This document shows, piece by piece, positions 27,321-64,000 of a stretch of 64,000 nucleotides of DNA; within the stretch, counting starts at the first letter, position 1; the number at the start of each line of letters is the position of its first letter. The stretch comes from Hyalangium gracile (GTDB taxonomy: Bacteria > Myxococcota > Myxococcia > Myxococcales > Myxococcaceae): NCBI RefSeq assembly GCF_020103725.1, contig NZ_JAHXBG010000004.1:310001-374000 (forward strand), given 5' to 3'. The notes under the pieces are model-generated. The model was not told the origin of the DNA and did not search any database. It saw only the letters and a program-made list of their open reading frames with translations. Position numbers and translations under genes: made by a program.

Positions 27321-28796
27321 ATGGAGCCGCTTCCTACCGCCTTCCTCCTCGTCATCGCCGGCGTGCTGATGGCGCTGAGCGTCCTGCTCAGCCGCGCCTC
27401 GAGGCGCTTCGGGCTCCCTGTGGCGATGCTCTTCCTGGGCATCGGCATGGCCGCGGGCTCGGACGGGCCCGGGGGCATCGAGTTCAACGACTATGGCGCC
27501 GCCTTCCGCCTGGGCACGGTGGCGCTCGTCCTCATCCTCTTCGACGGCGGCCTCAACACGCCCCTGTCCGCCGTGCGTGCCGCCATCCGCCCGGCCTCGG
27601 TGCTCGCCACGGTGGGCGTGGTGGCCACGGCGGGCTTCACGGGCGTGGCCGCGCACCTGCTGTTCGGCTTCTCCTGGCCGGTGGCCCTGCTCTTGGGGGC
27701 CATCGTCTCCTCCACGGACGCGGCGGCCGTCTTCTCCGTGCTGCGCGGCAGCGGGCTGCACCTCAAGCGCCGCGTGGGCACGACGCTCGAGCTGGAGTCC
27801 GGCCTCAATGACCCGATGGCCGTCATCCTCACGATGACCCTCACCCAGAACCTGGTGAGCGGAGCGGCGCTGGCCTGGCGGGAGGTGCTGCTGGATATCA
27901 TCATCCAGATGGTGGTGGGCGGCGGGATGGGCCTGGGGATTGGCTGGGTGGGCCGGCAGATCCTCAAGCGGCTGCGCCTGCAGGCAGCGGGCTTGTATCC
28001 GGTGATGACGCTGGCGCTGGCCTTCCTCGCCTTCGGCGTGCCCACGCTCTTCCAGGGCAGCGGCTTCCTGGCCGTGTACACGGTGGGCGTGATGATGGGC
28101 AACGAGACGCTGCGCTACCGCACGGGCCTGCTGCGGGTGCATGACGCGCTGGCGTGGCTCTCCCAGGTGGTCATGTTCCTGGTGCTGGGGCTGCTCGTCT
28201 TCCCCGAGCAGCTGCTCGATGTGGCCTGGGTGGGGCTGGGGCTCAGCCTCTTCATGGCCTTCGTCGCCCGTCCGCTCGCGGTGCTGCTCTGCCTGCTGCC
28301 CTTCCGCTTCCCGGCGGGGGAGATCGTCTACACCGGCTGGGTGGGGCTGCGCGGCGCGGTGCCCATCATCCTCGCCACCTACCCGGTGCTGGCCGGGGCG
28401 CCGGATGCCAACGCGGTCTTCAACGTCGTCTTCTTCATCGTCGTGGTGAACGGCTTCATCCCCGGCGCCACCGTGCCCTGGGTGACGCGCAAGCTGGGGC
28501 TGGCGGCCAACGTGCCAGAGCCGCCCCCCGCCGTCCTCGAGATCGCCTCCACGCAGCTGCTCAACGGCGAGCTGAGCGCCTTCTACATCGAAGCGGCCTC
28601 GGCCACGGCGGGGGCGCGCATCGCGGAGCTGCCGTTCCCGCCCGAGTCCGCCGCCATGCTCATCGTCCGCGGCCTGGAGCTGCTGGCGCCCAAGGGCGAC
28701 ACCGTCCTCCAGGCCGGGGACCACGTGTACGTCTTCTCTCGCTCGGAGGACCTGCCCTTCCTGCGCCTCATGTTCGGCCAGCGGGAGGACGAGTAG
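27321..28796 (+). CDS. CPA1 potassium(sodium)/proton antiporter with TrkA-C domain (NhaP2/CvrA-like)
   Basis: The 491-residue product has about 12 membrane helices with CPA1 landmarks: LILFDGGLNTP, GAIVSSTDAAAVFSVLRG (the DP/DA-type ion site), ELESGLNDPMAVILTMTL (conserved ND). The C-terminal ~85 residues form an RCK_C/TrkA-C regulatory domain (IAELPFPPESAAMLIVRG ... LQAGDHVYVFS). NhaP2/CvrA proteins exchange K+ or Na+ for H+ and aid osmotic and pH adaptation. It is transcribed away from the Kef-type gene. Confidence 0.93.
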   Translation: MEPLPTAFLLVIAGVLMALSVLLSRASRRFGLPVAMLFLGIGMAAGSDGPGGIEFNDYGAAFRLGTVALVLILFDGGLNTPLSAVRAAIRPASVLATVGVVATAGFTGVAAHLLFGFSWPVALLLGAIVSSTDAAAVFSVLRGSGLHLKRRVGTTLELESGLNDPMAVILTMTLTQNLVSGAALAWREVLLDIIIQMVVGGGMGLGIGWVGRQILKRLRLQAAGLYPVMTLALAFLAFGVPTLFQGSGFLAVYTVGVMMGNETLRYRTGLLRVHDALAWLSQVVMFLVLGLLVFPEQLLDVAWVGLGLSLFMAFVARPLAVLLCLLPFRFPAGEIVYTGWVGLRGAVPIILATYPVLAGAPDANAVFNVVFFIVVVNGFIPGATVPWVTRKLGLAANVPEPPPAVLEIASTQLLNGELSAFYIEAASATAGARIAELPFPPESAAMLIVRGLELLAPKGDTVLQAGDHVYVFSRSEDLPFLRLMFGQREDE

Positions 28797-28851
28797 GGGG
28801 CTGACCGGATCCGCTTTACGGGATGCCACTGCGCGTAGTACCTGCATTCAC

Positions 28852-29361
28852 ATGCGCTCCGGAGCCCTCACAGCACCGCTGCTGATCCAGGGACGGGGAG
28901 CGCTCTGGCGAGTGCTGGCGGCCAGTGGGGTCCTCCTGGCACTCGGAGTGTTGGCGGGGGCCTTCGAGCCCGAGGCGCCGGCCGGGGTCTCCGTCACGCT
29001 GGAGCGAGGCTCCCGGGAGGGCGCCCAGGTCGTTCGTGGGGCCAGGCCCTCGCTGGGAGCCGCTGCCCAGCGCTCCGGCATGCAGTCCCGCTCCTCGGCG
29101 CTTCAGGAGCAGGACGCCATCGCGGGGGGCTCGCAGTCGTCCGGCTCGCTGCCACAGCAGGTGCAGGCGCCGCGCGGGCGGGTGAGGTTCCAGACGGACA
29201 CGCAGGCGGTGCTGCGGCTGGTCCGCGAGCGGCAGGACGCCATCATCACCGCGTTCTCGCACCGGCTGCGCGATGCCTCGACGCCCGGGGCCGCCAGCCA
29301 CCCGGCGGATCGCCCGAGCATCGTCACCAGGCCCCTGCGCGGTCCTCCCGCCCCCGGCTGA
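28852..29361 (+). CDS. Small exported or membrane-anchored protein of unknown function
   Basis: The 169-residue product has one hydrophobic segment (WRVLAASGVLLALGVLAGAF, about residues 19-38) followed by a low-complexity Ser/Gln/Arg/Gly-rich region. A short helix (QTDTQAVLRLVRERQDAIITAFSH) is the only ordered-looking part. No family recognised. It lies 55 bp after the NhaP-type gene in the same direction and before another antiporter, so a role linked to ion transport is possible but unproven. Confidence 0.6.
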   Translation: MRSGALTAPLLIQGRGALWRVLAASGVLLALGVLAGAFEPEAPAGVSVTLERGSREGAQVVRGARPSLGAAAQRSGMQSRSSALQEQDAIAGGSQSSGSLPQQVQAPRGRVRFQTDTQAVLRLVRERQDAIITAFSHRLRDASTPGAASHPADRPSIVTRPLRGPPAPG

Positions 29362-29490
29362 TGTGCCCCTGAGTCGCGGCCCCCCGGGCCGCCCTTGCTG
29401 TCCGGCCATCCGCCCTGGCTCTCGCCCGAGGTCCGCGTCCGCGGAGCTCCGTGTGGGGGCGGGGTGCCTCTCCGTTCCAGGTGAACTCCC

Positions 29491-31566
29491 ATGCATGGCG
29501 CTCACGAGCTTCTGCAGGCCATCGCGGTGGTCCTGTGCGTCGCCGCGGTCACGACGGTGCTGTTCCAGCGACTGCGCCAGCCCGTCGTCCTCGGCTACAT
29601 CCTCGCCGGCCTCATCGTCGGCCCCTATGTGCCCATTCCGCTCGTCGCGGACGCGGGCGTCGTCCATACGCTCTCGGAGCTGGGCGTCATCCTCCTCATG
29701 TTCTCGCTCGGGCTGGAGTTCAGCCTGCGCAAGCTGTTCTCCGTGGGGCCCACGGCGGGGCTCACCGCCGTCATCCAGTGCAGCCTCATGGTGTGGCTCG
29801 GCTTCGTGGTGGGCCGCGCCTTCGGGTGGACGTCGCTCGAGAGCATCTTCACGGGTGCGCTCATCGCCATCTCCAGCACGACAATCATCGCCAAGGCGTT
29901 CGATGAGCAGGGCATCCGAGGCCGGCTGCGCGAGCTCGTCGTCGGCGTGCTCATCGTCGAGGACCTGATCGCCATCCTCCTCATGGCGATGCTCACGGCG
30001 GTCTCCACGGGCAGCGGCCTGTCCGCGGGGGGCCTGGCGCTCACCGTCGGCAAGCTGGCGGCGTTCCTCGTGGGGCTCGTGGTGGTGGGGCTGTTGATCG
30101 TCCCTCGGGCCATGCGGGCGGTGGTCCGGCTCAACCGGCCGGAGACGACGCTGGTGGCCAGCGTGGGCCTGTGCTTCGCGGTCTCGCTGCTGGCCCAGGC
30201 GTTCGGCTACTCGGTGGCGCTGGGCGCCTTCCTGGCGGGCTCCCTGGTCGCCGAGTCCGGGGTGGAGAAGGAGGTGGAGCACCTGGTCCAGCCCGTGAAG
30301 GACGTGTTCGCGGCCATCTTCTTCGTGTCGGTGGGCATGCTCATCGATCCGACGCTCATCGCCCGCCACTGGGTGGCCATCTTCGTGCTCACGGTGGTGG
30401 TCATCCTCGGGAAGATCCTCAGCGTGTCGCTGGGCGCCTTCCTCACGGGCAATGGCACCCGCACCTCCGTCCAGTCGGGCATGAGCCTGGCGCAGATCGG
30501 CGAGTTCTCGTTCATCATCGCCAGCCTGGGGCTCACGCTGAAGGCCACCGGTGAGTTCCTCTACCCGGTGGCGGTGGCGGTGTCGGCCGTCACCACGCTG
30601 ACCACGCCCATGCTCATCCGCGCCTCGGACCCCGTGGCCACCTTCGTGGACCGCAAGCTGCCGAAGCCGCTGCAGACGTTCGTGGCGCTGTACGGCAGCT
30701 GGGTGGAGCAGCTGCGAAACGCTCCGCCGCGCCAGACACGGGGCGCCAATGTCCGGCGGCTGGTGAGCCTGCTGCTCGTGGATGCGGTGCTGCTGGTGGG
30801 CCTGGTGATCGGTGCCTCCCTCTCGCTCGACAAGGGCTCCGCCTTCGTCGAGGAGAAGGCGGGCCTCGATCCGGTGCTGGCGAAGCGGCTCATCATCGGG
30901 GGCGTCTTCGTCCTCAGCCTGCCGTTCCTCGTCGGAATCGTCCGGGTGGCGCGCCGCCTGGCGGCGGAGCTGTCGGCGGTGGCGCTTCCCCTCAAGCCGG
31001 AAGGGAAGACGGACCTGGCGGCGGCGCCTCGGCGGGTGCTCGTCGTCACGCTGCAGGGAGTCATCGTGCTGCTGGTAGGCGTCCCGCTGGTCGCCATCAC
31101 CCAGCCGTTCCTCGGTGGGTTCGCGGGCCCGCTCATCGTGCTGGCGCTCCTCGTGGCGCTGGGCATCTCCTTCTGGCGCAGCGCGACGAACCTGCAGGGG
31201 CACGTCCGGGCGGGAGCGCAGGTCCTCGTCGAGGCCCTCGCCGCGCAGTCCCACGCGAAGGCGCACGGCGCCGAGCACGGCGCCACGCCTGAACCCCTGG
31301 CACAGGCCCATCAGCTGCTGCCCGGCCTGGGCACCCCGACGCCGGTGCGGCTGGAGGAGACGAGCCCCGCGGTGGGCAAGACGCTGGCGGAGCTGAACCT
31401 CCGGGGCGTGACGGGCGCCACGGTGCTGGCCATCCACCGAGAGGGCGCGGATGTCTCCATTCCCACGGCGGGGGAGGTGCTCCAGCCCGGGGATGTGCTG
31501 GCGCTGGCGGGGACGCATGACGCCGTGGAGGCCGCCAGGGGCCTGCTGACGGCGCCGGCGTCATAG
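29491..31566 (+). CDS. Kef-type cation:proton antiporter with TrkA-C domain
   Basis: The 691-residue CPA2 transporter: residues 1-390 carry about 12 helices with VLGYILAGLIVGPYVP, LSELGVILLMFSLGLEFSL and VLIVEDLIAILLMAML (conserved ED), all Kef/YbaL-like. It lacks the RCK_N nucleotide-binding domain of the 25457-27238 protein; instead there are extra helices (about 430-560) and a C-terminal RCK_C domain (VGKTLAELNLRGVTGATVLAI ... LQPGDVLALAG). Likely K+ or Na+ for H+ exchange. Third antiporter within 6.2 kb. Its stop is 12 bp from the convergent radA stop. Confidence 0.93.
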   Translation: MHGAHELLQAIAVVLCVAAVTTVLFQRLRQPVVLGYILAGLIVGPYVPIPLVADAGVVHTLSELGVILLMFSLGLEFSLRKLFSVGPTAGLTAVIQCSLMVWLGFVVGRAFGWTSLESIFTGALIAISSTTIIAKAFDEQGIRGRLRELVVGVLIVEDLIAILLMAMLTAVSTGSGLSAGGLALTVGKLAAFLVGLVVVGLLIVPRAMRAVVRLNRPETTLVASVGLCFAVSLLAQAFGYSVALGAFLAGSLVAESGVEKEVEHLVQPVKDVFAAIFFVSVGMLIDPTLIARHWVAIFVLTVVVILGKILSVSLGAFLTGNGTRTSVQSGMSLAQIGEFSFIIASLGLTLKATGEFLYPVAVAVSAVTTLTTPMLIRASDPVATFVDRKLPKPLQTFVALYGSWVEQLRNAPPRQTRGANVRRLVSLLLVDAVLLVGLVIGASLSLDKGSAFVEEKAGLDPVLAKRLIIGGVFVLSLPFLVGIVRVARRLAAELSAVALPLKPEGKTDLAAAPRRVLVVTLQGVIVLLVGVPLVAITQPFLGGFAGPLIVLALLVALGISFWRSATNLQGHVRAGAQVLVEALAAQSHAKAHGAEHGATPEPLAQAHQLLPGLGTPTPVRLEETSPAVGKTLAELNLRGVTGATVLAIHREGADVSIPTAGEVLQPGDVLALAGTHDAVEAARGLLTAPAS

Positions 31567-57564: not shown

Positions 57565-57674
57565 GCTCCAAAATGGTGCACCCCTCCGACAGCAGCGAAG
57601 GCACGGGGTCTTCGTGGATCTGCCAGCTCGCTGGAGAGGCACGTAGACTCGAATGGCTTCTGGCAGGGGGTTAC

Positions 57675-57806
57675 GTGGCGCAGCTCAACTGGCCTCATCT
57701 TTCGGATCTGCACCTGGGCCTGCGCAGTTCACGGCTGCTGCGCCCCGAATACCGGGAGGCGTTCGAGTTCGATCTGCGGAGGCTTCATGAGCGCTCGGGT
57801 CCGTGG
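57675..57806 (+). pseudogene. Broken 5' end of a metallophosphoesterase gene
   Basis: GTG at 57675, with AGGGGG 4 bases upstream, opens 44 codons reading MAQLNWPHLSDLHLGLRSS ... FDLRRLHERSGPW. HLSDLHLG is the first metal-binding motif (D-x-H) of calcineurin-like phosphoesterases. Immediately after this the frame becomes meaningless and stops at 57935, while a WD40 sequence starts in the +1 frame at 57805. The remaining phosphoesterase motifs are missing here, so this is the truncated start of a once longer protein. Confidence 0.65.
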
Positions 57807-60414
57807 CACCCTCGTGCTCTGGGACATGCAGACGGGAGAGCTGGTCAGCACCCTGCCATCCCCGCTGGGCCCCACCACGGTGGTGCATGGCCTGGCCTGG
57901 TCTCCCGATGGGCAGACCCTCGCCTGTGGTTGTGAGGGGGACGTCCGCCTCGTGCTGTGGAAGAAGCAGCTCGTGCATCAGCTCTTTCTGCGGGACTCGG
58001 CGCTGGCCCTGATGGTGATGGAGCCCGCGCGAGGGGACACCGCGCTGAGCGTCATCGAGGGGTGGAACCAGCGCCTGATGGCCCAGGCGGGAGCGAGGAG
58101 CCTCCGCAAGCTGCTGGTAGGCAGCAAGGTGGACAGCGAGCACGCTCCCGAGAATCGCACCGCCATCGAGAGCCTGGTGAGCCGCTGCCAGTTCACCGAC
58201 TATGTGCCCACCAGCGCCAGGACGGGCCGGGGCATCCCCGAGCTCAAGGCGGCGCTGGAGCAGGCCATCGACTGGGGCTCCATCGAGAAGGTCAGCCGCC
58301 CCGAGTTGTTCCAGCGCCTGCGCCAGCACATCCAGCGGCTGCGCGAGGATCGGCGGGTGGTGCTCACCTTCTTCGAGCTGGAGAACGAGCTGCGCCGGCA
58401 GATGGGGCGCGACTTCGATCCCGAGGCGCTCCGGGCCGTGGTGGGCCAGCTCAGCCGTCAGGGGCTCGTCGCGGACACCCGCATGGGGGATGGCACGCGG
58501 GTGCTCATCCTCGAGGTTGAGCAGGTGGAGCGCTACGCGGGCTCGCTCATCCTCGCCGCGCGGGACAACCCCCACGGCGTTCCCGCACTGGATGCGGCGA
58601 AGGTGCAGTCTCCCACGATGCGCTTCCTGCGCATCCTTCCCGAGGAGCGGCTGCGCCGCGACCAGGAGCTGGCGATCCTCGACTGCGTCATCGAGCTGCT
58701 GCTCGAGCACGGGCTCTGCCTGCGACACGAGGGGCTGCTCATCTTCCCCTCCTTGTTCCGGCCCGCTCCCACCGAGCCCGGCGCGGAGTTCTCCCACTCC
58801 GTGTCGCTGCACTACGACTGCTCCGGTCCCATCGACAACGTCTACGCGTCGCTCATCAGCTGGCTGGCCATCAGTGAGCGCTTCGGCGCCATGCGCCTGT
58901 GGGAGGATCGCGCGGAGTTCGGCCGGGCTGGCCTGGAGTCCTCGGGGGTCCGGCGCGTGCAGCGCGGCGGTGCGGAGGGCGGGGGCTTCGCGCGGCTGGA
59001 CGTCTATTTCGATCCGGGGACACCCGAGGCCACGCGCGAGCTGTTCGTGAACTTCGTCGAGCACCACCTCCGCGAGCACGGGGTGCAGCTGCTGGAGCAG
59101 CTCGTCATCACCTGCGCGTGTGGCAATGTCTTCGCGGAGAAGGTCGTCCGGGAGCGCATGGCCGCCGGGCATCCGGACATCGGCTGTCCGGCGTGTGACC
59201 GGCGAACGCCGCTCACGCTGGGCGCGCAGCAGGCCCGGGAGCGCAATCCGGAGCTCCTCAAGCAGCTCCAGGCGCTGCGGACCAACATCCGCCAGCAGCG
59301 CTCTCAGGACGTCATCGAGGTGAAGGTGGCGATGGAGGAGGCGCGCCGCGTCCAGGTGTCCCAGGAGGTGCCGCTGAGAATCCTCCACCTGAGCGATCTG
59401 CACGTCGGGGCGGGCGCGGATCCGCTCAGCCTGCTCCAGCCGCTCGAGGCGGACCTGAAGGACCGGAGCCAGGGGCTTGGGGTGGATCGTCTGGACTACC
59501 TGGTCATCTCCGGGGACATCACCAATCGCGCCGCACCCGAGGAGTTCGAGAAGGCCCGTGGGTTCGTGTCCGAGCTCATCGCCCGCTTCGGGCTGACGGC
59601 CGAGCGCTGCATCCTCGTGCCGGGCAACCATGATCTGGACTGGGACACGGAGGTCTACATCCGGAAGAAGAGGCGGCAGGTGGATGCCCGCGCGCTCATT
59701 CCCGGCGCCTACAAGGAGGATGGGGATGGGTACTACCTTCGGGACGAGGCGAAGTACCCCGAGCGCTTCAGGAACTTCTCGCGGCACTTCTACCACCCGC
59801 TGACCCAGCGGGAGTATCCGCTGGCGCCCGAGGAGCAGTGCCTCTCGTTCCTCACGGACTCACGGCTGCAGTTCCTGGCGATGAACTCGGCCTGGGAGAT
59901 CGACGAGTACTTCACGGAGCGCTCCGGCATCTGCGAGCAGGCGCTGTCTCGCGGGCTCGACGCCGCCAACAGGGAGCTGACCGCGGCTCGTGGGAGGAGA
60001 GAGCTTCAGGCGGGGGAGCCAGTCCTTCGGCTGGCCGTCTGGCATCACCCCATCACAGGCAACGAGAAGATCCAGGCCGATGCCTTCATGAGCCGGCTGC
60101 TCCAGGCGGACGTGCGGGTCTGCCTCCATGGCCACGTTCACGAGGAGCGGGTCGATCTGATCAACCCCCTTCACCCGGAGCGGCGAATCCAAGTCGTGGG
60201 AGCCGGCAGCTTCGGAGCGCCCACCCACCATCGCCCGGAGTCCGTGCCGCGGCTGTACAACCTGCTGGAGATTCCGCGCGACCTGCGGAGCCTGCGCGTC
60301 CACACGCGATGCCAGCGCAGGCAAGGCGGCGCCTGGGAAGGGTGGGCGGTGTGGCCCTCCTCTCAGCCCGGTGAGAAGCGGGCCTGGTACGAAGTCACCT
60401 TCCCGGGCCTGTAA
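57787..60414 (+). CDS. WD40-blade / P-loop-less Roc-like GTPase / C4 cluster / metallophosphoesterase protein
   Basis: The 875-residue product is a patchwork. About 7-50: one WD40 blade (GTLVLWDMQTGELVSTL, LAWSPDGQTLACG). About 55-165: second half of a Ras/Roc-like GTPase with LVHQLFLRDSALALMV, an NKxD-like GSKVD (about 112) and SAK-like TSARTGRG (about 142), but no P-loop or switch regions. About 170-260: COR-like helical/winged region. Cys443, 445, 467 and 470 could form a zinc ribbon. About 530-860: complete calcineurin-like phosphoesterase with HLSDLHVG, SGDITN, PGNHDLDW, HHP and GHVH. ATG 57787 has GGAGG 4 bases upstream, so it can be translated. It overlaps the broken upstream gene start. 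Confidence 0.85.
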   Translation: MSARVRGTLVLWDMQTGELVSTLPSPLGPTTVVHGLAWSPDGQTLACGCEGDVRLVLWKKQLVHQLFLRDSALALMVMEPARGDTALSVIEGWNQRLMAQAGARSLRKLLVGSKVDSEHAPENRTAIESLVSRCQFTDYVPTSARTGRGIPELKAALEQAIDWGSIEKVSRPELFQRLRQHIQRLREDRRVVLTFFELENELRRQMGRDFDPEALRAVVGQLSRQGLVADTRMGDGTRVLILEVEQVERYAGSLILAARDNPHGVPALDAAKVQSPTMRFLRILPEERLRRDQELAILDCVIELLLEHGLCLRHEGLLIFPSLFRPAPTEPGAEFSHSVSLHYDCSGPIDNVYASLISWLAISERFGAMRLWEDRAEFGRAGLESSGVRRVQRGGAEGGGFARLDVYFDPGTPEATRELFVNFVEHHLREHGVQLLEQLVITCACGNVFAEKVVRERMAAGHPDIGCPACDRRTPLTLGAQQARERNPELLKQLQALRTNIRQQRSQDVIEVKVAMEEARRVQVSQEVPLRILHLSDLHVGAGADPLSLLQPLEADLKDRSQGLGVDRLDYLVISGDITNRAAPEEFEKARGFVSELIARFGLTAERCILVPGNHDLDWDTEVYIRKKRRQVDARALIPGAYKEDGDGYYLRDEAKYPERFRNFSRHFYHPLTQREYPLAPEEQCLSFLTDSRLQFLAMNSAWEIDEYFTERSGICEQALSRGLDAANRELTAARGRRELQAGEPVLRLAVWHHPITGNEKIQADAFMSRLLQADVRVCLHGHVHEERVDLINPLHPERRIQVVGAGSFGAPTHHRPESVPRLYNLLEIPRDLRSLRVHTRCQRRQGGAWEGWAVWPSSQPGEKRAWYEVTFPGL

Positions 60415-60504: not shown

Positions 60505-61797
60505 TCAGCGGCTGCTCGATGAGAAGTAGGACTGACGGCCGGCACGTGTGGGCATGGGCATGCGCGCGGGAGCCTCAGGCGCTGGCTCCTCGGGGGCCTG
60601 GAGCTGCCGCACCACGTTCCCGTAGAGCTCCGTCCAGGCGACCGGCGGCAGGGCCTCGATCGCGGCCGGCGGCGGCAACGCCAGGTAGAGGATGGAGTCC
60701 TGCGTGAGGCGGGCCATGCCTGGATCCAGCTTCGGGAAGGCCGTCGCCGCCAGCTCGCAGAGCAGCTCCACCCGAGGGCGCTCCAGGGAGAGCGACAGGG
60801 ACACATGCGCGGCGCCCGGTGCCCCCGGCGCGGGAGACGCCACCACCGTCACTCCCCGCGACGTCCGCTTGGAGCCAGGTGCGTCCGGCACAGCTTCCTC
60901 CAGGCAGGCAGTGGTGGCGCTTCGCACCTCCTCGAGGTGCGCGGGGGCCAGCAGGTGGCGACGCGGCTCCAGGGCGTGCCGGAGGGCCAGCGAGGCCACC
61001 ATCAGCGCGGCCAGAAAGCCCAGCATGGCCAGGTCGCGCACGTCTGGAAAGCCAGGGCGTGCTCGCTCGATGAGCACGACCGCCAGCGTCACCTCGACGA
61101 GCGACATCCACCGGGCCTGCGAGAGCCCGAGCAGGTGCGGACGCTTGTCTCCGCGAAGCCCCTCCAGCCCGAAGCGCATCACCGCATAGCCCATCAGGAA
61201 CCACACCAGCACGCGGCCCGGCGCCGGCTCGAAGGGCAGCGCCACCAGCCCCACCAGCCCGATGATGGTGAGCCCCACCGCTTCGATGGCCTGCACCGGG
61301 AACAGCCGGATCCCCACCAGGTAGCGCGGGAAACCATCGCTCGCGCATGACTCGGGATAGCGGATCCCCAGCGCGGAGGGCTTGCCGTGACAGCACCCCA
61401 CGAACAGGCACCCCACGCGCCCTCCTGTCAGGAAGAAGGCGAGGCCCACCGCCACCGCATCCAGGTATGCGACTACGGATTCCCCCAGCAGCAGCAGCGT
61501 GCCGGTGGCGCAGGCGAGCGCGAACCACACGTGCTCCAGCAGGACGAGCTCCTCGTGGCCCGTGATGGCCCGGCGCAACCAGGTGTAGATGAAGAACGAC
61601 AGCGCACACACTCCCGAGAGCACCGCCAGCACCAGGAGCGAGCGCCCCGCGATGAGCCCCGCGCCCAGGGTGGTGATGACGGCGACGTAGTAGCCGACGA
61701 TGCCGCAGGTGCGGTGTACGGGAACCTCGGTGCTGCCCCGACCAAAGCGGGTGCGTGGCAGCGAGTCGAGGAACCGATTGAGCGATTCACCAGCCAT
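60505..61797 (-). CDS. Lgt-like membrane protein with long soluble C-terminal extension
   Basis: The 430-residue product: about seven membrane helices in residues 30-285 and the Lgt-family segment LTGGRVGCLFVGCCHGKPSALGIRYP, typical of divergent prolipoprotein diacylglyceryl transferase homologues (GRxGCFxxGCCxG). Residues ~290-430 are soluble and not part of Lgt; they include SLSLSLERPRVELLCELAATAFP and a Pro-rich region. Whether it retains diacylglyceryl transferase activity is doubtful; it may be a paralogue acting on a special substrate. ATG 61797 has GGGGAG upstream. It diverges from the DUF4157 gene. Confidence 0.82.
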   Translation of the reverse strand: MAGESLNRFLDSLPRTRFGRGSTEVPVHRTCGIVGYYVAVITTLGAGLIAGRSLLVLAVLSGVCALSFFIYTWLRRAITGHEELVLLEHVWFALACATGTLLLLGESVVAYLDAVAVGLAFFLTGGRVGCLFVGCCHGKPSALGIRYPESCASDGFPRYLVGIRLFPVQAIEAVGLTIIGLVGLVALPFEPAPGRVLVWFLMGYAVMRFGLEGLRGDKRPHLLGLSQARWMSLVEVTLAVVLIERARPGFPDVRDLAMLGFLAALMVASLALRHALEPRRHLLAPAHLEEVRSATTACLEEAVPDAPGSKRTSRGVTVVASPAPGAPGAAHVSLSLSLERPRVELLCELAATAFPKLDPGMARLTQDSILYLALPPPAAIEALPPVAWTELYGNVVRQLQAPEEPAPEAPARMPMPTRAGRQSYFSSSSR

Positions 61798-61866
61798 GAA
61801 GCTCCCCGGTGGATCCGAGAATGCGTGACGCCCCCCGAACCTGGCCGGAAAAACCGCGTGTGGGAC

Positions 61867-61905
61867 TTCCCGCCCTTCAGACAAGGGGGCTACATTTTCC
61901 CGCCC
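61867..61905. promoter_or_regulatory. Direct repeat TTCCCGCCC x2, 30-bp period, in divergent promoter
   Basis: TTCCCGCCC occurs at 61867-61875 and again at 61897-61905, exactly 30 bp apart (about three helical turns), in the 112 bp region between the Lgt-like and DUF4157 genes. Same-face direct repeats suit a tandem-binding regulator. The second copy ends 4 bp before the DUF4157 ATG. Confidence 0.35.
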
Positions 61906-61909
61906 GTCC

Positions 61910-64000
61910 ATGTCCAAGGGAAGCGCCAAGCGATCCGGGAAGGGAACTGCTCACGCCCGGGCTCCGGCGCAGGCGGAGAAGCGCTCCGCCGAGGCGAAGG
62001 CCCAGCCGACGAAGGCGGCCCCGAAAGCGCCCCCCTCGGCGCCCGTTCGCCCGAACCCCATCGCGTTCCGGCTCGCCACCCACGTGCGCGGAACCGGCAA
62101 TGCCGCGGAGCGGGCCGCGGATCAGGTAGCCACCGCGGTCGTCCTCCCTCCAGCGCCGCCCACCTCCGCCGGAGGAGCGGCGATGCCGGGCAATCCTCCG
62201 GGCGGAGCAGGGACTCCTCCCCCGGGAGACCCCGGCGCTTCTCCGAGGCCGCGCGCGCCCTTCGGGATCCTCGTCGAGGATGGGCTGCCCGTCGGCCCCG
62301 GGCAGGTGGGGCGCTCCGCATTCCTCGCGACCCTCACCGAGAGCGTCACCCGCGCCGCCGAGGAAGAGCTCGCGCCCTTCGGACGAACGACGCGTGACTG
62401 CCCGTATCTGGCGCACTGGCTGGCGTTCTACCGGCAGCGGCCCGCGGAGGCGATCGAGCGCGCCATCGAGCGCTACGCGCGCCCGGGGCGGACCGATGCG
62501 GCCTCGCTGACGGACGCGGTGGTGGCCCGCGTCCGCGCCGCCGCGCGGGAGTGGGGGAGGTCCGGCAACATCACCCAGGTGCCCCTGGGCGTTGCCTGGC
62601 TGGGGACCACTGACGGCGTGGGGGAGCCGAGTCCCTCGCTCCAGGCGATGGCTCCTGCGGCGGTGCCCTCGGCCTCGGGCGAGGCGGGCGCGGTGCTCGC
62701 GCGGCTCGGGCCGGGACGGCCGCTCGACCTCGGAGTGAGAACACCTCTCGAGCGAGGCTTCGGCCAGAGCTTCGCCGACGTGCGCATCCACACGGACAGG
62801 GCGGCCGACGAGGTGACTCGCGGCTACTCGGCCTGGGCGCTCACCGTGGGCCGCGACGTGGCCTTCGGGGCAGGCCAGTTCCGCCCCGGCACGATCGAGG
62901 GGGACCTGCTGCTCGCCCATGAGCTGGCGCACGTCGTCCAGCAGCGCGGCGCCTCCCGGCCTCCCGCCCCGAAGCGGCTCGAGACCGGCCCGGCTCCCTC
63001 CCTGGAGCGGGACGCGGATCGCGCGGCGGTGGGGGTGGTGGCCTCCACCTGGCCTGTCGGCCTCCAGGAGGAGGCGCTTCGCAAGCACGGCCTCGCCCAT
63101 GACGCCGCGAAGCTCACCACCCTGGCGGAGACCGAGGCGCGCCCCACGTTGACCAGCGGGCTGCGACTCTCTCGGTGCCTGGGCGAGGACACCGAGGCAC
63201 CAACGACGGACGGACGGCTCCGCGCCCCCGCGGTGCCGCGGACCTCGGAGACCTTCCAGACAGGGAATGTCCCGGGGCAGGTGGATCCCGGCACGGCCCT
63301 GACCACCGGCGGCCTCGAGTTCCGCTTCGACGCGGACGGCGACCAGATGAAGGAGATGCAGGCGCGCATCCGCTGGCTCGACGACGGCAGCCGCACCGTG
63401 GTCGTCGACGTCACCCAGCTCTCCTCCGGTGTCACCCGGACCGTGCGCTTCCAGATCCTCGATCTGAACATCACCGGAGCACGGCCCCACATCCAGGAGG
63501 TCACCGACGGACGGCGCCCCACGCGGATCCGCTTTCCCTCCACCAGTTCGGGCTTCCAGGATCTCCTCATCGATCCCGTGGAGCGCACGGACCATGGCAT
63601 CCGCCTCCACGCCCGGTTGGAGCAGCGCTCTCTGAACGGCTCTCCGTGGGGAGATCCACCCCAGCCCCAGAGCGTGGAGTTCCCGGCCGAGACGACGCCC
63701 ACCCGCCGCGTCTTCGGGGTGGACCGCAACGAGCTGGACCAGCCGAGCCCTCCCCAGCACGTCGGGGACCTCTGGTTCATCGACGCGAGCGTCGGCGCCT
63801 ACAACGACCGGTTCCGGTTCACCTTCCGCAAGCGCAACCCCACCCAGGAGGCGGTGGATTGCTCCGTGGCCGTGCTCTCAGGGGGGACCCCCGTCGGGGG
63901 CCGCGGCTTCACCACCTTCGTCCAGGGCGCGCTCAACGTGCGCATCGTGGATGCCAACGGGGTGCGGCTCGCCATCGACCTCAACGGCGATGGGACGGAG
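61910..64000 (+). CDS. DUF4157 (eCIS-core) protein with HELAH motif, 3' end beyond window
   Basis: At least 697 residues, still open at the window edge. It starts with a basic, Ala/Pro-rich disordered stretch (about 1-125) and a helical region (about 130-240). The DUF4157 domain at about 270-350 contains LDLGVRTPLERGFGQSFADV, VRIHTD, YSAWALTVGRDVAFGAGQF and the metallopeptidase-like HELAHVVQQRG (337-347). A mostly beta C-terminal part follows. DUF4157 proteins are associated with extracellular contractile injection systems as cargo or processing factors. The ATG at 61910 is the first in-frame start after a stop at 61826; no ribosome site is obvious. Confidence 0.88.
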   Translation, partial: MSKGSAKRSGKGTAHARAPAQAEKRSAEAKAQPTKAAPKAPPSAPVRPNPIAFRLATHVRGTGNAAERAADQVATAVVLPPAPPTSAGGAAMPGNPPGGAGTPPPGDPGASPRPRAPFGILVEDGLPVGPGQVGRSAFLATLTESVTRAAEEELAPFGRTTRDCPYLAHWLAFYRQRPAEAIERAIERYARPGRTDAASLTDAVVARVRAAAREWGRSGNITQVPLGVAWLGTTDGVGEPSPSLQAMAPAAVPSASGEAGAVLARLGPGRPLDLGVRTPLERGFGQSFADVRIHTDRAADEVTRGYSAWALTVGRDVAFGAGQFRPGTIEGDLLLAHELAHVVQQRGASRPPAPKRLETGPAPSLERDADRAAVGVVASTWPVGLQEEALRKHGLAHDAAKLTTLAETEARPTLTSGLRLSRCLGEDTEAPTTDGRLRAPAVPRTSETFQTGNVPGQVDPGTALTTGGLEFRFDADGDQMKEMQARIRWLDDGSRTVVVDVTQLSSGVTRTVRFQILDLNITGARPHIQEVTDGRRPTRIRFPSTSSGFQDLLIDPVERTDHGIRLHARLEQRSLNGSPWGDPPQPQSVEFPAETTPTRRVFGVDRNELDQPSPPQHVGDLWFIDASVGAYNDRFRFTFRKRNPTQEAVDCSVAVLSGGTPVGGRGFTTFVQGALNVRIVDANGVRLAIDLNGDGTE

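What the first reader, a model, noticed from the sequence alone, without database searches (positions are those of the whole stretch)
57675..60414. Deletion-built WD40 / P-loop-less Roc GTPase / metallophosphoesterase protein
The sequence shows two seams. At 57805 a metallophosphoesterase start (44 codons, HLSDLHLG) switches frame directly into a WD40 blade. Around residue 55 a WD40 strand (GDVRLVLW) runs directly into the middle of a Roc-like GTPase (LVHQLFLRD), losing the P-loop and switch motifs. What remains is an open 875-codon frame with a plausible ribosome site and an intact C-terminal phosphoesterase active site. Full-length relatives would be large WD40-GTPase signalling or conflict proteins; this may be a slimmed nuclease or phosphatase module that no longer needs GTP.
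Basis: partly seen in the sequence, partly recalled or inferred. Interest (0 to 1): 0.75.

Follow-up and report, generated by a model that had tools for sequence, protein, structure and literature searches.

The report
Deletion-broken bacterial GTPase–phosphoesterase gene
A large myxobacterial gene that joins a sensor propeller, a GTP switch and a phosphate-ester-cutting enzyme has lost two big pieces here, so what is left is most likely a recently broken copy rather than a new slim protein; its intact relatives, an unusual branch of the Roco family that resembles immune proteins, are the more interesting part.

Summary
The 44-codon piece (57675-57806), a WD40 scrap and the 3' part (57967-60411) match, in order, one gene: a 1605-aa Hyalangium versicolor protein with the order degenerate phosphoesterase (MPE_N) - WD40 - Roc - COR - cysteine-bearing linker - phosphoesterase (MPE_C). 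Against it the window gene lacks about 1400 bp (out of frame; cuts off the native start) and 672 bp (in frame; takes P-loop and DxGGQ). All 21 homologues scored for these motifs keep a P-loop and DxGGQ (18) or DxAGQ (3); no relative found has this compact form. In a tree the window copy sits in a clade whose six other members are full length, so the short form arose by loss. The missing parts are not elsewhere in the genome as close matches. The remaining 815 codons have no stop, no acceleration and intact MPE_C motifs, so the loss is recent or the remnant is constrained; I favour recent pseudogenisation (0.75). The intact parent is a patchily spread Roco variant with a phosphoesterase related to DS-9/DS-8 and varying terminal domains, resembling immune/conflict proteins; that role is inferred.

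The parts
57663..57670 (+). ribosome-site-like stretch (GCAGGGGG) before the native start GTG 57675
   Evidence: read in the sequence; H. versicolor has CGGAGGGGGG before its GTG
57675..57806 (+). first 44 codons of the degenerate N-terminal phosphoesterase (MPE_N) with its native start; the frame runs on to a stop at 57933-57935 (86 codons)
   Evidence: 70% identity to residues 1-44 of the 1605-aa H. versicolor protein, E 2e-19; frame
57787..60414 (+). open reading frame of 875 codons (P0001) from an internal ATG; remnant of WD40-Roc-COR-MPE
   Evidence: the frame is open from 57475 with no ATG, GTG or TTG before 57787
57805..57960 (+). blade-sized WD40 scrap (residues 7-58) between the two seams
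   Evidence: Pfam WD40 E 0.0029 at 19-55, 18.5 bits, below the cut-off of 27; DNA match 57878-57929 to L009 10848-10899; mean pLDDT 23-39 in the blocks of residues 1-70
57967..58290 (+). C-terminal half of the Roc GTPase from QLVHQLF (GSKVD and TSAR kept; P-loop, switch I and DxGGQ lost)
   Evidence: alignment; only Ras profile positions 66-153 of 162 match, E 0.055
58291..59106 (+). COR domain (residues about 169-440; boundaries approximate)
   Evidence: Foldseek on the model: C. tepidum Roco RocCOR 3dpu_A E 5.3e-10, COR 3dpt_A E 6.6e-9
59107..59373 (+). linker with zinc-ribbon-like cysteines (C443, C467, C470 nearly invariant) and a long helix
   Evidence: conservation list, secondary structure; zinc binding inferred
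59374..60411 (+). C-terminal calcineurin-like phosphoesterase (MPE_C) with SDLH, SGD, GNHD, HHP, GHVH
   Evidence: read in P0001; Pfam Metallophos E 2.1e-12; NF053862 E 7.3e-26, below its cut-off; fold match to Rv0805 Z 18.4

Best explanation
A recently degraded copy (pseudogene or near-pseudogene) of a Roco-type protein. In the intact parent the WD40 propeller would sense a trigger, the Roc-COR GTPase would switch with GTP, and the C-terminal phosphoesterase (MPE_C) would then cut a phosphodiester, most likely a nucleotide; MPE_N, which lacks the GHxH motif, would bind rather than cut. In this strain a loss of about 1400 bp joined the first 44 codons out of frame to a WD40 blade, and a loss of about 672 bp joined that blade in frame to the second half of Roc. 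Ribosomes that start at the native GTG make an 86-aa dead end; the 875-codon frame needs a chance internal ATG, and its product would have no complete propeller and no P-loop. Shown: both losses, the domain order of relatives, intact MPE_C motifs. Inferred: loss of function, and the parent's trigger, substrate and immune role.
For: Three collinear matches to one full-length gene. P-loop and DxGGQ/DxAGQ in 21 of 21 scored relatives (16, 3, 2). Full architecture in the 6 nearest relatives, which with the window copy form a 7-row clade at 100/100. No relative with this compact form. Missing parts not elsewhere in the genome as close matches: best are a 37-38% phosphoesterase pair on C19 and other WD40 proteins. 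Native-start frame ends after 86 codons. The WD40 scrap is below the Pfam cut-off and modelled at low confidence (it had no aligned relatives in that job, so this is weak). Another member of the same genus, the MAG G005, holds besides a longer homologue an isolated 42-residue C-terminal stub, 76% identical to the window copy, in an open frame of 43 codons: such genes do decay.
Against: No stop in the 815 retained codons; dN/dS against relatives (0.22-0.40) lies in the range of intact pairs (0.15-0.43); 9 of 250 otherwise invariant columns changed, against 5 of 246 and 12 of 253 in H. versicolor and G061; end branch 0.24, second shortest in the clade of seven; MPE_C motifs intact. These fit a recent loss or a constrained remnant equally. 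The second loss is in frame (chance 1 in 3).
Confidence: 0.75

Rival explanations
1. The 875-aa product is made and works: a GTP-independent, constitutive or dominant-negative phosphoesterase (for example pairing through COR).
For: Open frame, intact MPE_C motifs, normal constraint and short branch; COR blocks mostly at pLDDT 79-94 and MPE_C 78-95 up to residue 750; catalytically inactive effector versions are common in related conflict systems (PMC7159879, passages).
Against: Native start leads to an 86-aa dead end; the internal ATG and its GGAGG are inherited coding sequence; no second genome with this form found; no close intact paralogue in this genome to interfere with, the other matches being 29% and 37% over the phosphoesterase only.
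Confidence: 0.15
2. Assembly artefact: the gene is intact in the organism and two segments were collapsed.
For: Draft genome of 81 contigs; reads could not be inspected.
Against: In two intact relatives the longest exact word shared by the two sides of either gap, within 120 nt of approximate borders, is 8 nt, and no 20-mer repeats inside the window gene; the missing parts are not on another contig as close matches. The real ancestral sequence is unknown, so the repeat test is by proxy.
Confidence: 0.08
3. Compact ancestral form: the large relatives gained the missing parts.
For: None found.
Against: The window copy sits inside a clade of six full-length members, and WD40-Roc-COR-MPE is shared with other phyla; its N piece is the start of a domain that it does not have.
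Confidence: 0.02

Closest known systems
Roco family (Roc-COR GTPases; C. tepidum Roco, LRRK2)
   Same: Intact relatives have a Roc domain with P-loop followed by a region that in the window model matches the COR fold
   Different: WD40 in front instead of the LRR that a 2019 review gives for all prokaryotic Roco proteins then identified (PMC6337361, passage), and a C-terminal phosphoesterase; the window copy has lost half of Roc
DS-9A and DS-8 anti-phage metallophosphatases (DefensePredictor)
   Same: MPE_C matches NF053862 (E 7.3e-26) and NF053861 (E 2.6e-15); DS-8 pairs such a domain with a NACHT NTPase (PMC13092281, passages)
   Different: Scores 91 and 55 against cut-offs 420 and 790, so not a member; the switch in the parent is Roc-COR, not NACHT; no HAD match among 6 flanking proteins scanned
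Rv0805, GpdQ and SMPDL3A phosphodiesterases
   Same: MPE_C fold: Rv0805 3ib7 Z 18.4, rmsd 3.5 over 234; SMPDL3A 5fc1 Z 17.4, rmsd 4.1 over 275; GpdQ 3d03 Z 17.3, rmsd 3.5 over 229; tied or nearly so with purple acid phosphatases and others
   Different: 12-22% identity; substrate untested. The best row, Z 24.9, is chain B of 9a6c, an entry titled 'Integrative model of YYDD-YYDB'
NTP-dependent conflict systems of multicellular bacteria (Kaur et al. 2020)
   Same: Calcineurin-type and PNPase effectors in variable slots, COR-linked NTPases among the parts, many inactive enzyme copies (PMC7159879, passages)
   Different: The WD40-Roc-COR-MPE layout was not met in the passages seen; the paper was not read whole

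Membership tests
Roco (window copy) | Roc domain with P-loop (G1) and switch II (G3) | tested here: not met
   no GxxxxGK[ST] and no DxGGQ in P0001
Roco (intact relatives) | Roc domain with P-loop and G3 | tested here: met
   21 of 21 scored: 18 with DxGGQ, 3 with DxAGQ; Pfam Roc E 1.8e-19, 5.3e-16 and 7.6e-19 in three proteins
Roco | COR domain behind Roc | tested here: met
   Foldseek 3dpt_A E 6.6e-9 and 3dpu_A E 5.3e-10 on the window model; no Pfam COR row in the tables shown (two of the tables were cut at 25 rows)
Roco, prokaryotic group of the 2019 review | LRR in front of RocCOR | tested here: not met
   no LRR row in the complete Pfam lists of P0001 and L010; WD40 there instead
Calcineurin-like phosphoesterase | DxH, GD, GNHD, H, GHxH motifs | tested here: met
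   SDLH, SGD, GNHD, HHP, GHVH in P0001; Metallophos above cut-off. Among relatives 14 of 16 show all five; L027 and L028 lack HHP and GHVH
DS-9A anti-phage phosphoesterase (NF053862) | score above the curated cut-off | tested here: not met
   91 bits against 420
DS-8 anti-phage protein (NF053861) | score above the curated cut-off; NACHT domain | tested here: not met
   55.2 bits against 790; no NACHT in the Pfam list of P0001
Pseudogene | native start cut off by a frame change and parts lost that all scored relatives keep | tested here: met
Pseudogene | further decay (stops, frameshifts, relaxed constraint) | tested here: not met
   no stop in 815 codons, no excess of changes, short branch
Pseudogene | not expressed or without function | not testable with these tools
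   no RNA or protein data at hand

The most novel reading that the evidence does not exclude
Loss of the sensor and of the nucleotide pocket has turned a GTP-gated, immune-type Roco phosphoesterase into a smaller ungated protein, held together by COR and MPE_C, made from an internal start and kept by selection, either as an always-on phosphodiesterase or as a dominant-negative partner of other COR proteins.
Probability: 0.12. Interest if true: 0.6.

Novelty: new member of a known kind. Interest (0 to 1): 0.33.

Why it matters
As a broken gene it is ordinary: large accessory genes of this sort come and go, and a second genome of the genus holds a 42-residue stub of the same family. It matters as a pointer to the intact relatives: bacterial Roco proteins with WD40 in front and a phosphoesterase related to anti-phage ones behind, with a phosphoesterase, a nucleoside phosphorylase or a CHAT-like stretch added at an end in some. 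Testing one intact member against phages, with P-loop and phosphoesterase mutants, would tell whether Roc-COR switches, best known from LRRK2, gate bacterial immunity.

Tried and rejected
Split-gene or second-copy reading: the missing domains are not elsewhere in the genome as close matches. Empty-site comparison: the downstream Lgt-like gene has no match at E 1e-20 in the six other genomes of the genus, and the upstream 144-aa gene matches only G006, on another contig (C46) than the homologue (C14), so no syntenic empty or intact site was found. Operon partner: in the neighbourhoods fetched (gene calls by a crude codon-bias filter) no neighbour family was seen in more than two independent loci; pairwise matches exist, for example a protein of about 190 aa near the genes in L039 and L041, and a 1054-aa protein of L040 matching something in L029/L041; L021 and L022 share neighbours as near-identical loci. 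The cyclase beside the G005 homologue was seen only there. Mobile context: 10 weak viral-contig matches, all to the phosphoesterase part; two cyanobacterial plasmids, 29.5% over 92% of the query and 26.5% over the front 55%. PADLOC hits PDC-S60, 'Effector' and PDC-S10 cover only the phosphoesterase. No PADLOC match in 4 flanking proteins. PHROGs: only weak matches. VIA-align rows covered almost only the phosphoesterase; nothing is concluded from it for Roc or COR. The PDB profile search listed mostly Ras-like GTPases for the Roc half and one phosphoesterase among the 60 of 372 shown. A neutral simulation of the 875-codon frame (substitutions only, AT-biased, assumed rates) kept it open in 43% of runs at 1%, 18% at 2%, 6% at 3% and 0.25% at 5% divergence, a loose limit only. 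NG86 dS values are high, so dN/dS is rough. L031 was missed by the motif script and scored; L042 and L043, distant homologues without MPE_C, were scored. Not scored: the Calothrix plasmid hit (not fetched), and L029/L041, L032 and L034, which show no Roc. One search prints an open frame of 199 aa for the G005 stub, one search gives 43 codons; I did not resolve the difference. Papers: search listings (two searches returned none) and passages of PMC7159879, PMC8195603, PMC13092281, PMC6337361 and PMC10907252; no paper was read whole.

Full report
What was checked. The same-genus genome G006 is Hyalangium versicolor, recognised by its contig of 275570 bases, the record NZ_JAHXBF010000020.1. The finding covers GTG 57675 to stop 60414. 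The frame from 57675 runs 86 codons. The frame from ATG 57787 runs 875 codons; it is open from 57475 but holds no start codon before 57787.

The parent gene. Blast of the two pieces, kept apart, against the H. versicolor protein (L009 9245-14059, GTG start, 1605 aa) gives residues 1-44 for the first piece (70%, E 2e-19) and residues 777-1598 for the second (66% of 823 columns). At DNA level three collinear blocks match: 57689-57806, 57878-57929 and 57967-60354. From these coordinates the net loss is about 1400 bp at seam 1, not a multiple of three, and 672 bp (224 codons) at seam 2. Seam 1 goes from ...SGPW to ...GTLVLWDM; seam 2 goes from ...GDVRLVLW through KK to QLVHQLF. Intact relatives have an LxLW or similar word in that WD40 strand and [VI]LWD[LM]GGQSEY[QR]LVHQLF in Roc, so similar short words sit on both sides of seam 2; but the longest exact word shared by the two sides of either gap is 8 nt in the two relatives tested. 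How the losses happened is not resolved.

Architecture of the family. Mapping six segments of the H. versicolor protein on ORFs of the fetched loci gives MPE_N - WD40 - Roc - COR - linker - MPE_C in six genes of five genomes: H. versicolor, G061, G031, two genes in G041, and Sorangium cellulosum; they are 1579-1615 aa from the MPE_N start. Acidobacteriota, Bradyrhizobium, Verrucomicrobiota, Deltaproteobacteria MAGs and the MAG G005 have WD40 - Roc - COR - linker - MPE_C without MPE_N; L025 starts at a contig end, and in L030 no WD40 match passed the cut-off. Two distant homologues, L042 and L043, have WD40 - Roc - COR without MPE_C. The front slot varies: MPE_N in the six genes above, a nucleoside phosphorylase domain before WD40-Roc in a Symploca contig (L035). 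A Nostoc plasmid copy carries a C-terminal stretch that looks like a CHAT peptidase (recognised by eye, not by a search). MPE_C also occurs on other bodies: behind a phosphorylase and a protein kinase in Corallococcus llansteffanensis (L041) and in a 751-aa protein of a MAG (L032). MPE_N lacks GHxH in 6 of 6 and departs at other motifs in several, so it is probably not a normal enzyme. MPE_C motifs are all present in the window copy and in 14 of 16 relatives.

Derived by loss. In a 17-row tree of the shared part the window copy falls in a clade of seven at 100/100, whose six other members all have the full architecture. Searches with P0001 in 96 genomes of the family (9 with matches at E 1e-30, the window's own included) and 195 of the phylum (7 at E 1e-50, an overlapping set) gave no homologue of this compact form; only up to 9 and 4 candidates a genome were scored there. 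The genome-contig scan gave 18 loci, also none of this form, though some are contig ends or fragments and cannot be judged. Of 21 relatives scored for motifs, 21 have a P-loop, 18 DxGGQ and 3 DxAGQ. The MAG G005 also holds an isolated 42-residue C-terminal stub, 76% identical to the window copy, so another member of this family has decayed in the genus.

State of the remnant. In 815 codons there is no stop. Pairwise dN/dS with relatives is 0.22-0.40, within the 0.15-0.43 among intact pairs. It departs from 9 of 250 columns that are otherwise invariant among the seven, against 5 of 246 for H. versicolor, 12 of 253 for G061 and 24 to 38 for the other four. GC3 is 0.90. Its end branch is 0.24, against 0.21 and 0.28 in H. 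versicolor and G061. None of the nine changes lies in an MPE motif; one is the loss of a single residue near 689. So there has been no long decay: either the losses are recent or the remnant stayed under constraint. The neutral simulation puts a loose limit of about 3-5% divergence on an unconstrained remnant.

Structure. An AlphaFold2 model of P0001 on 17 sequences has mean pLDDT 78.6. Residues 1-71 are below 50 (they had no partner rows, so this is weak evidence), the half Roc is about 70-88, COR mostly 79-94, and MPE_C 78-95 up to residue 750 but 50-94 beyond it, with 50-66 in several blocks that hold the HHP and GHVH motifs. Foldseek finds C. tepidum Roco and LRRK2 for Roc-COR, and Rv0805 and GpdQ for MPE_C. 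VIA-align gives 9a6c_B Z 24.9 (an integrative model), Rv0805 Z 18.4 and SMPDL3A Z 17.4, the last two tied with several others.

Function of the parent (inferred). MPE_C matches the DS-9A and DS-8 anti-phage profiles, well below their cut-offs; in DS-8 mutations in the phosphatase or in the NTPase abolished defence (PMC13092281, passage). Solitary genes in differing neighbourhoods, patchy spread over phyla, presence of a full-layout copy on a conjugative plasmid and varying enzymatic ends fit a conflict or immune protein of the kind described by Kaur et al. (PMC7159879, passages). The working model, WD40 senses, Roc-COR switches, MPE_C cuts a nucleotide or another phosphodiester, was not tested in any step. 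The flanks of the window gene are not a defence island by PADLOC (4 proteins).

Novelty. A 2019 Roco review states that all prokaryotic Roco proteins then identified belong to the LRR-RocCOR group (PMC6337361, passage). Nine searches of the held library with combinations of Roco, Roc-COR, WD40, calcineurin, metallophosphoesterase, anti-phage and related words listed no paper that by title or shown abstract describes WD40-Roc-COR-phosphoesterase proteins; that does not prove that none is in print. For the finding itself, a deletion-broken member of such a family, I file it as a new member of a known kind.

Verdict. Observation confirmed; interpretation partly supported. Most likely a recently broken gene (0.75), a working remnant at 0.15, an assembly error at 0.08, an ancestral compact form at 0.02.

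Noticed in passing
L009 9245-14059; L020, L037, L038, L039, L040: Six myxobacterial proteins with two phosphoesterase domains around WD40-Roc-COR; the front one lacks GHxH in all six, so an intact and a degenerate copy sit in one chain.
   Followed up: partly
L065 4834-9165 (Nostoc sp. C057 plasmid p057_H, typed conjugative): WD40-Roc-COR-MPE protein with a C-terminal CHAT-like stretch, near NACHT genes and a transposase.
   Followed up: partly
L036 5421-5549 (MAG G005, contig of 24564 bases): Isolated 42-residue stub of the C-terminus of this family, 76% identical to the window copy.
   Followed up: partly
L035 2004-4601 (Symploca contig): Nucleoside phosphorylase domain in front of WD40-Roc, in the slot held by MPE_N in myxobacteria.
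   Followed up: no
L041 6208-9840: Corallococcus llansteffanensis 1211-aa protein: nucleoside phosphorylase, protein kinase and MPE_C, the same phosphoesterase on another body.
   Followed up: no
L010 6560-12770: In the MAG G005 the Roco homologue lies directly behind an FHA-TPR-nucleotide cyclase gene (frames abut within about 20 nt), a possible cyclase/phosphodiesterase pair; seen only there.
   Followed up: partly
L044 (window's genome, contig C19, about 27800-29650): Two neighbouring phosphoesterase genes 37-38% identical to MPE_N, one with an intact HGHMH.
   Followed up: partly
L002 1-2352 (window's genome, contig C1): Phosphoesterase fused to a STAND-like NTPase with a P-loop (GMPGLGKT), possibly of DS-8-like layout (domain call by eye).
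   Followed up: no
window 60505-61929 (-): 474-aa protein with an Lgt (prolipoprotein diacylglyceryl transferase) match at 149-287 and a long C-terminal extension; no match at E 1e-20 in the six other genomes of the genus.
   Followed up: no
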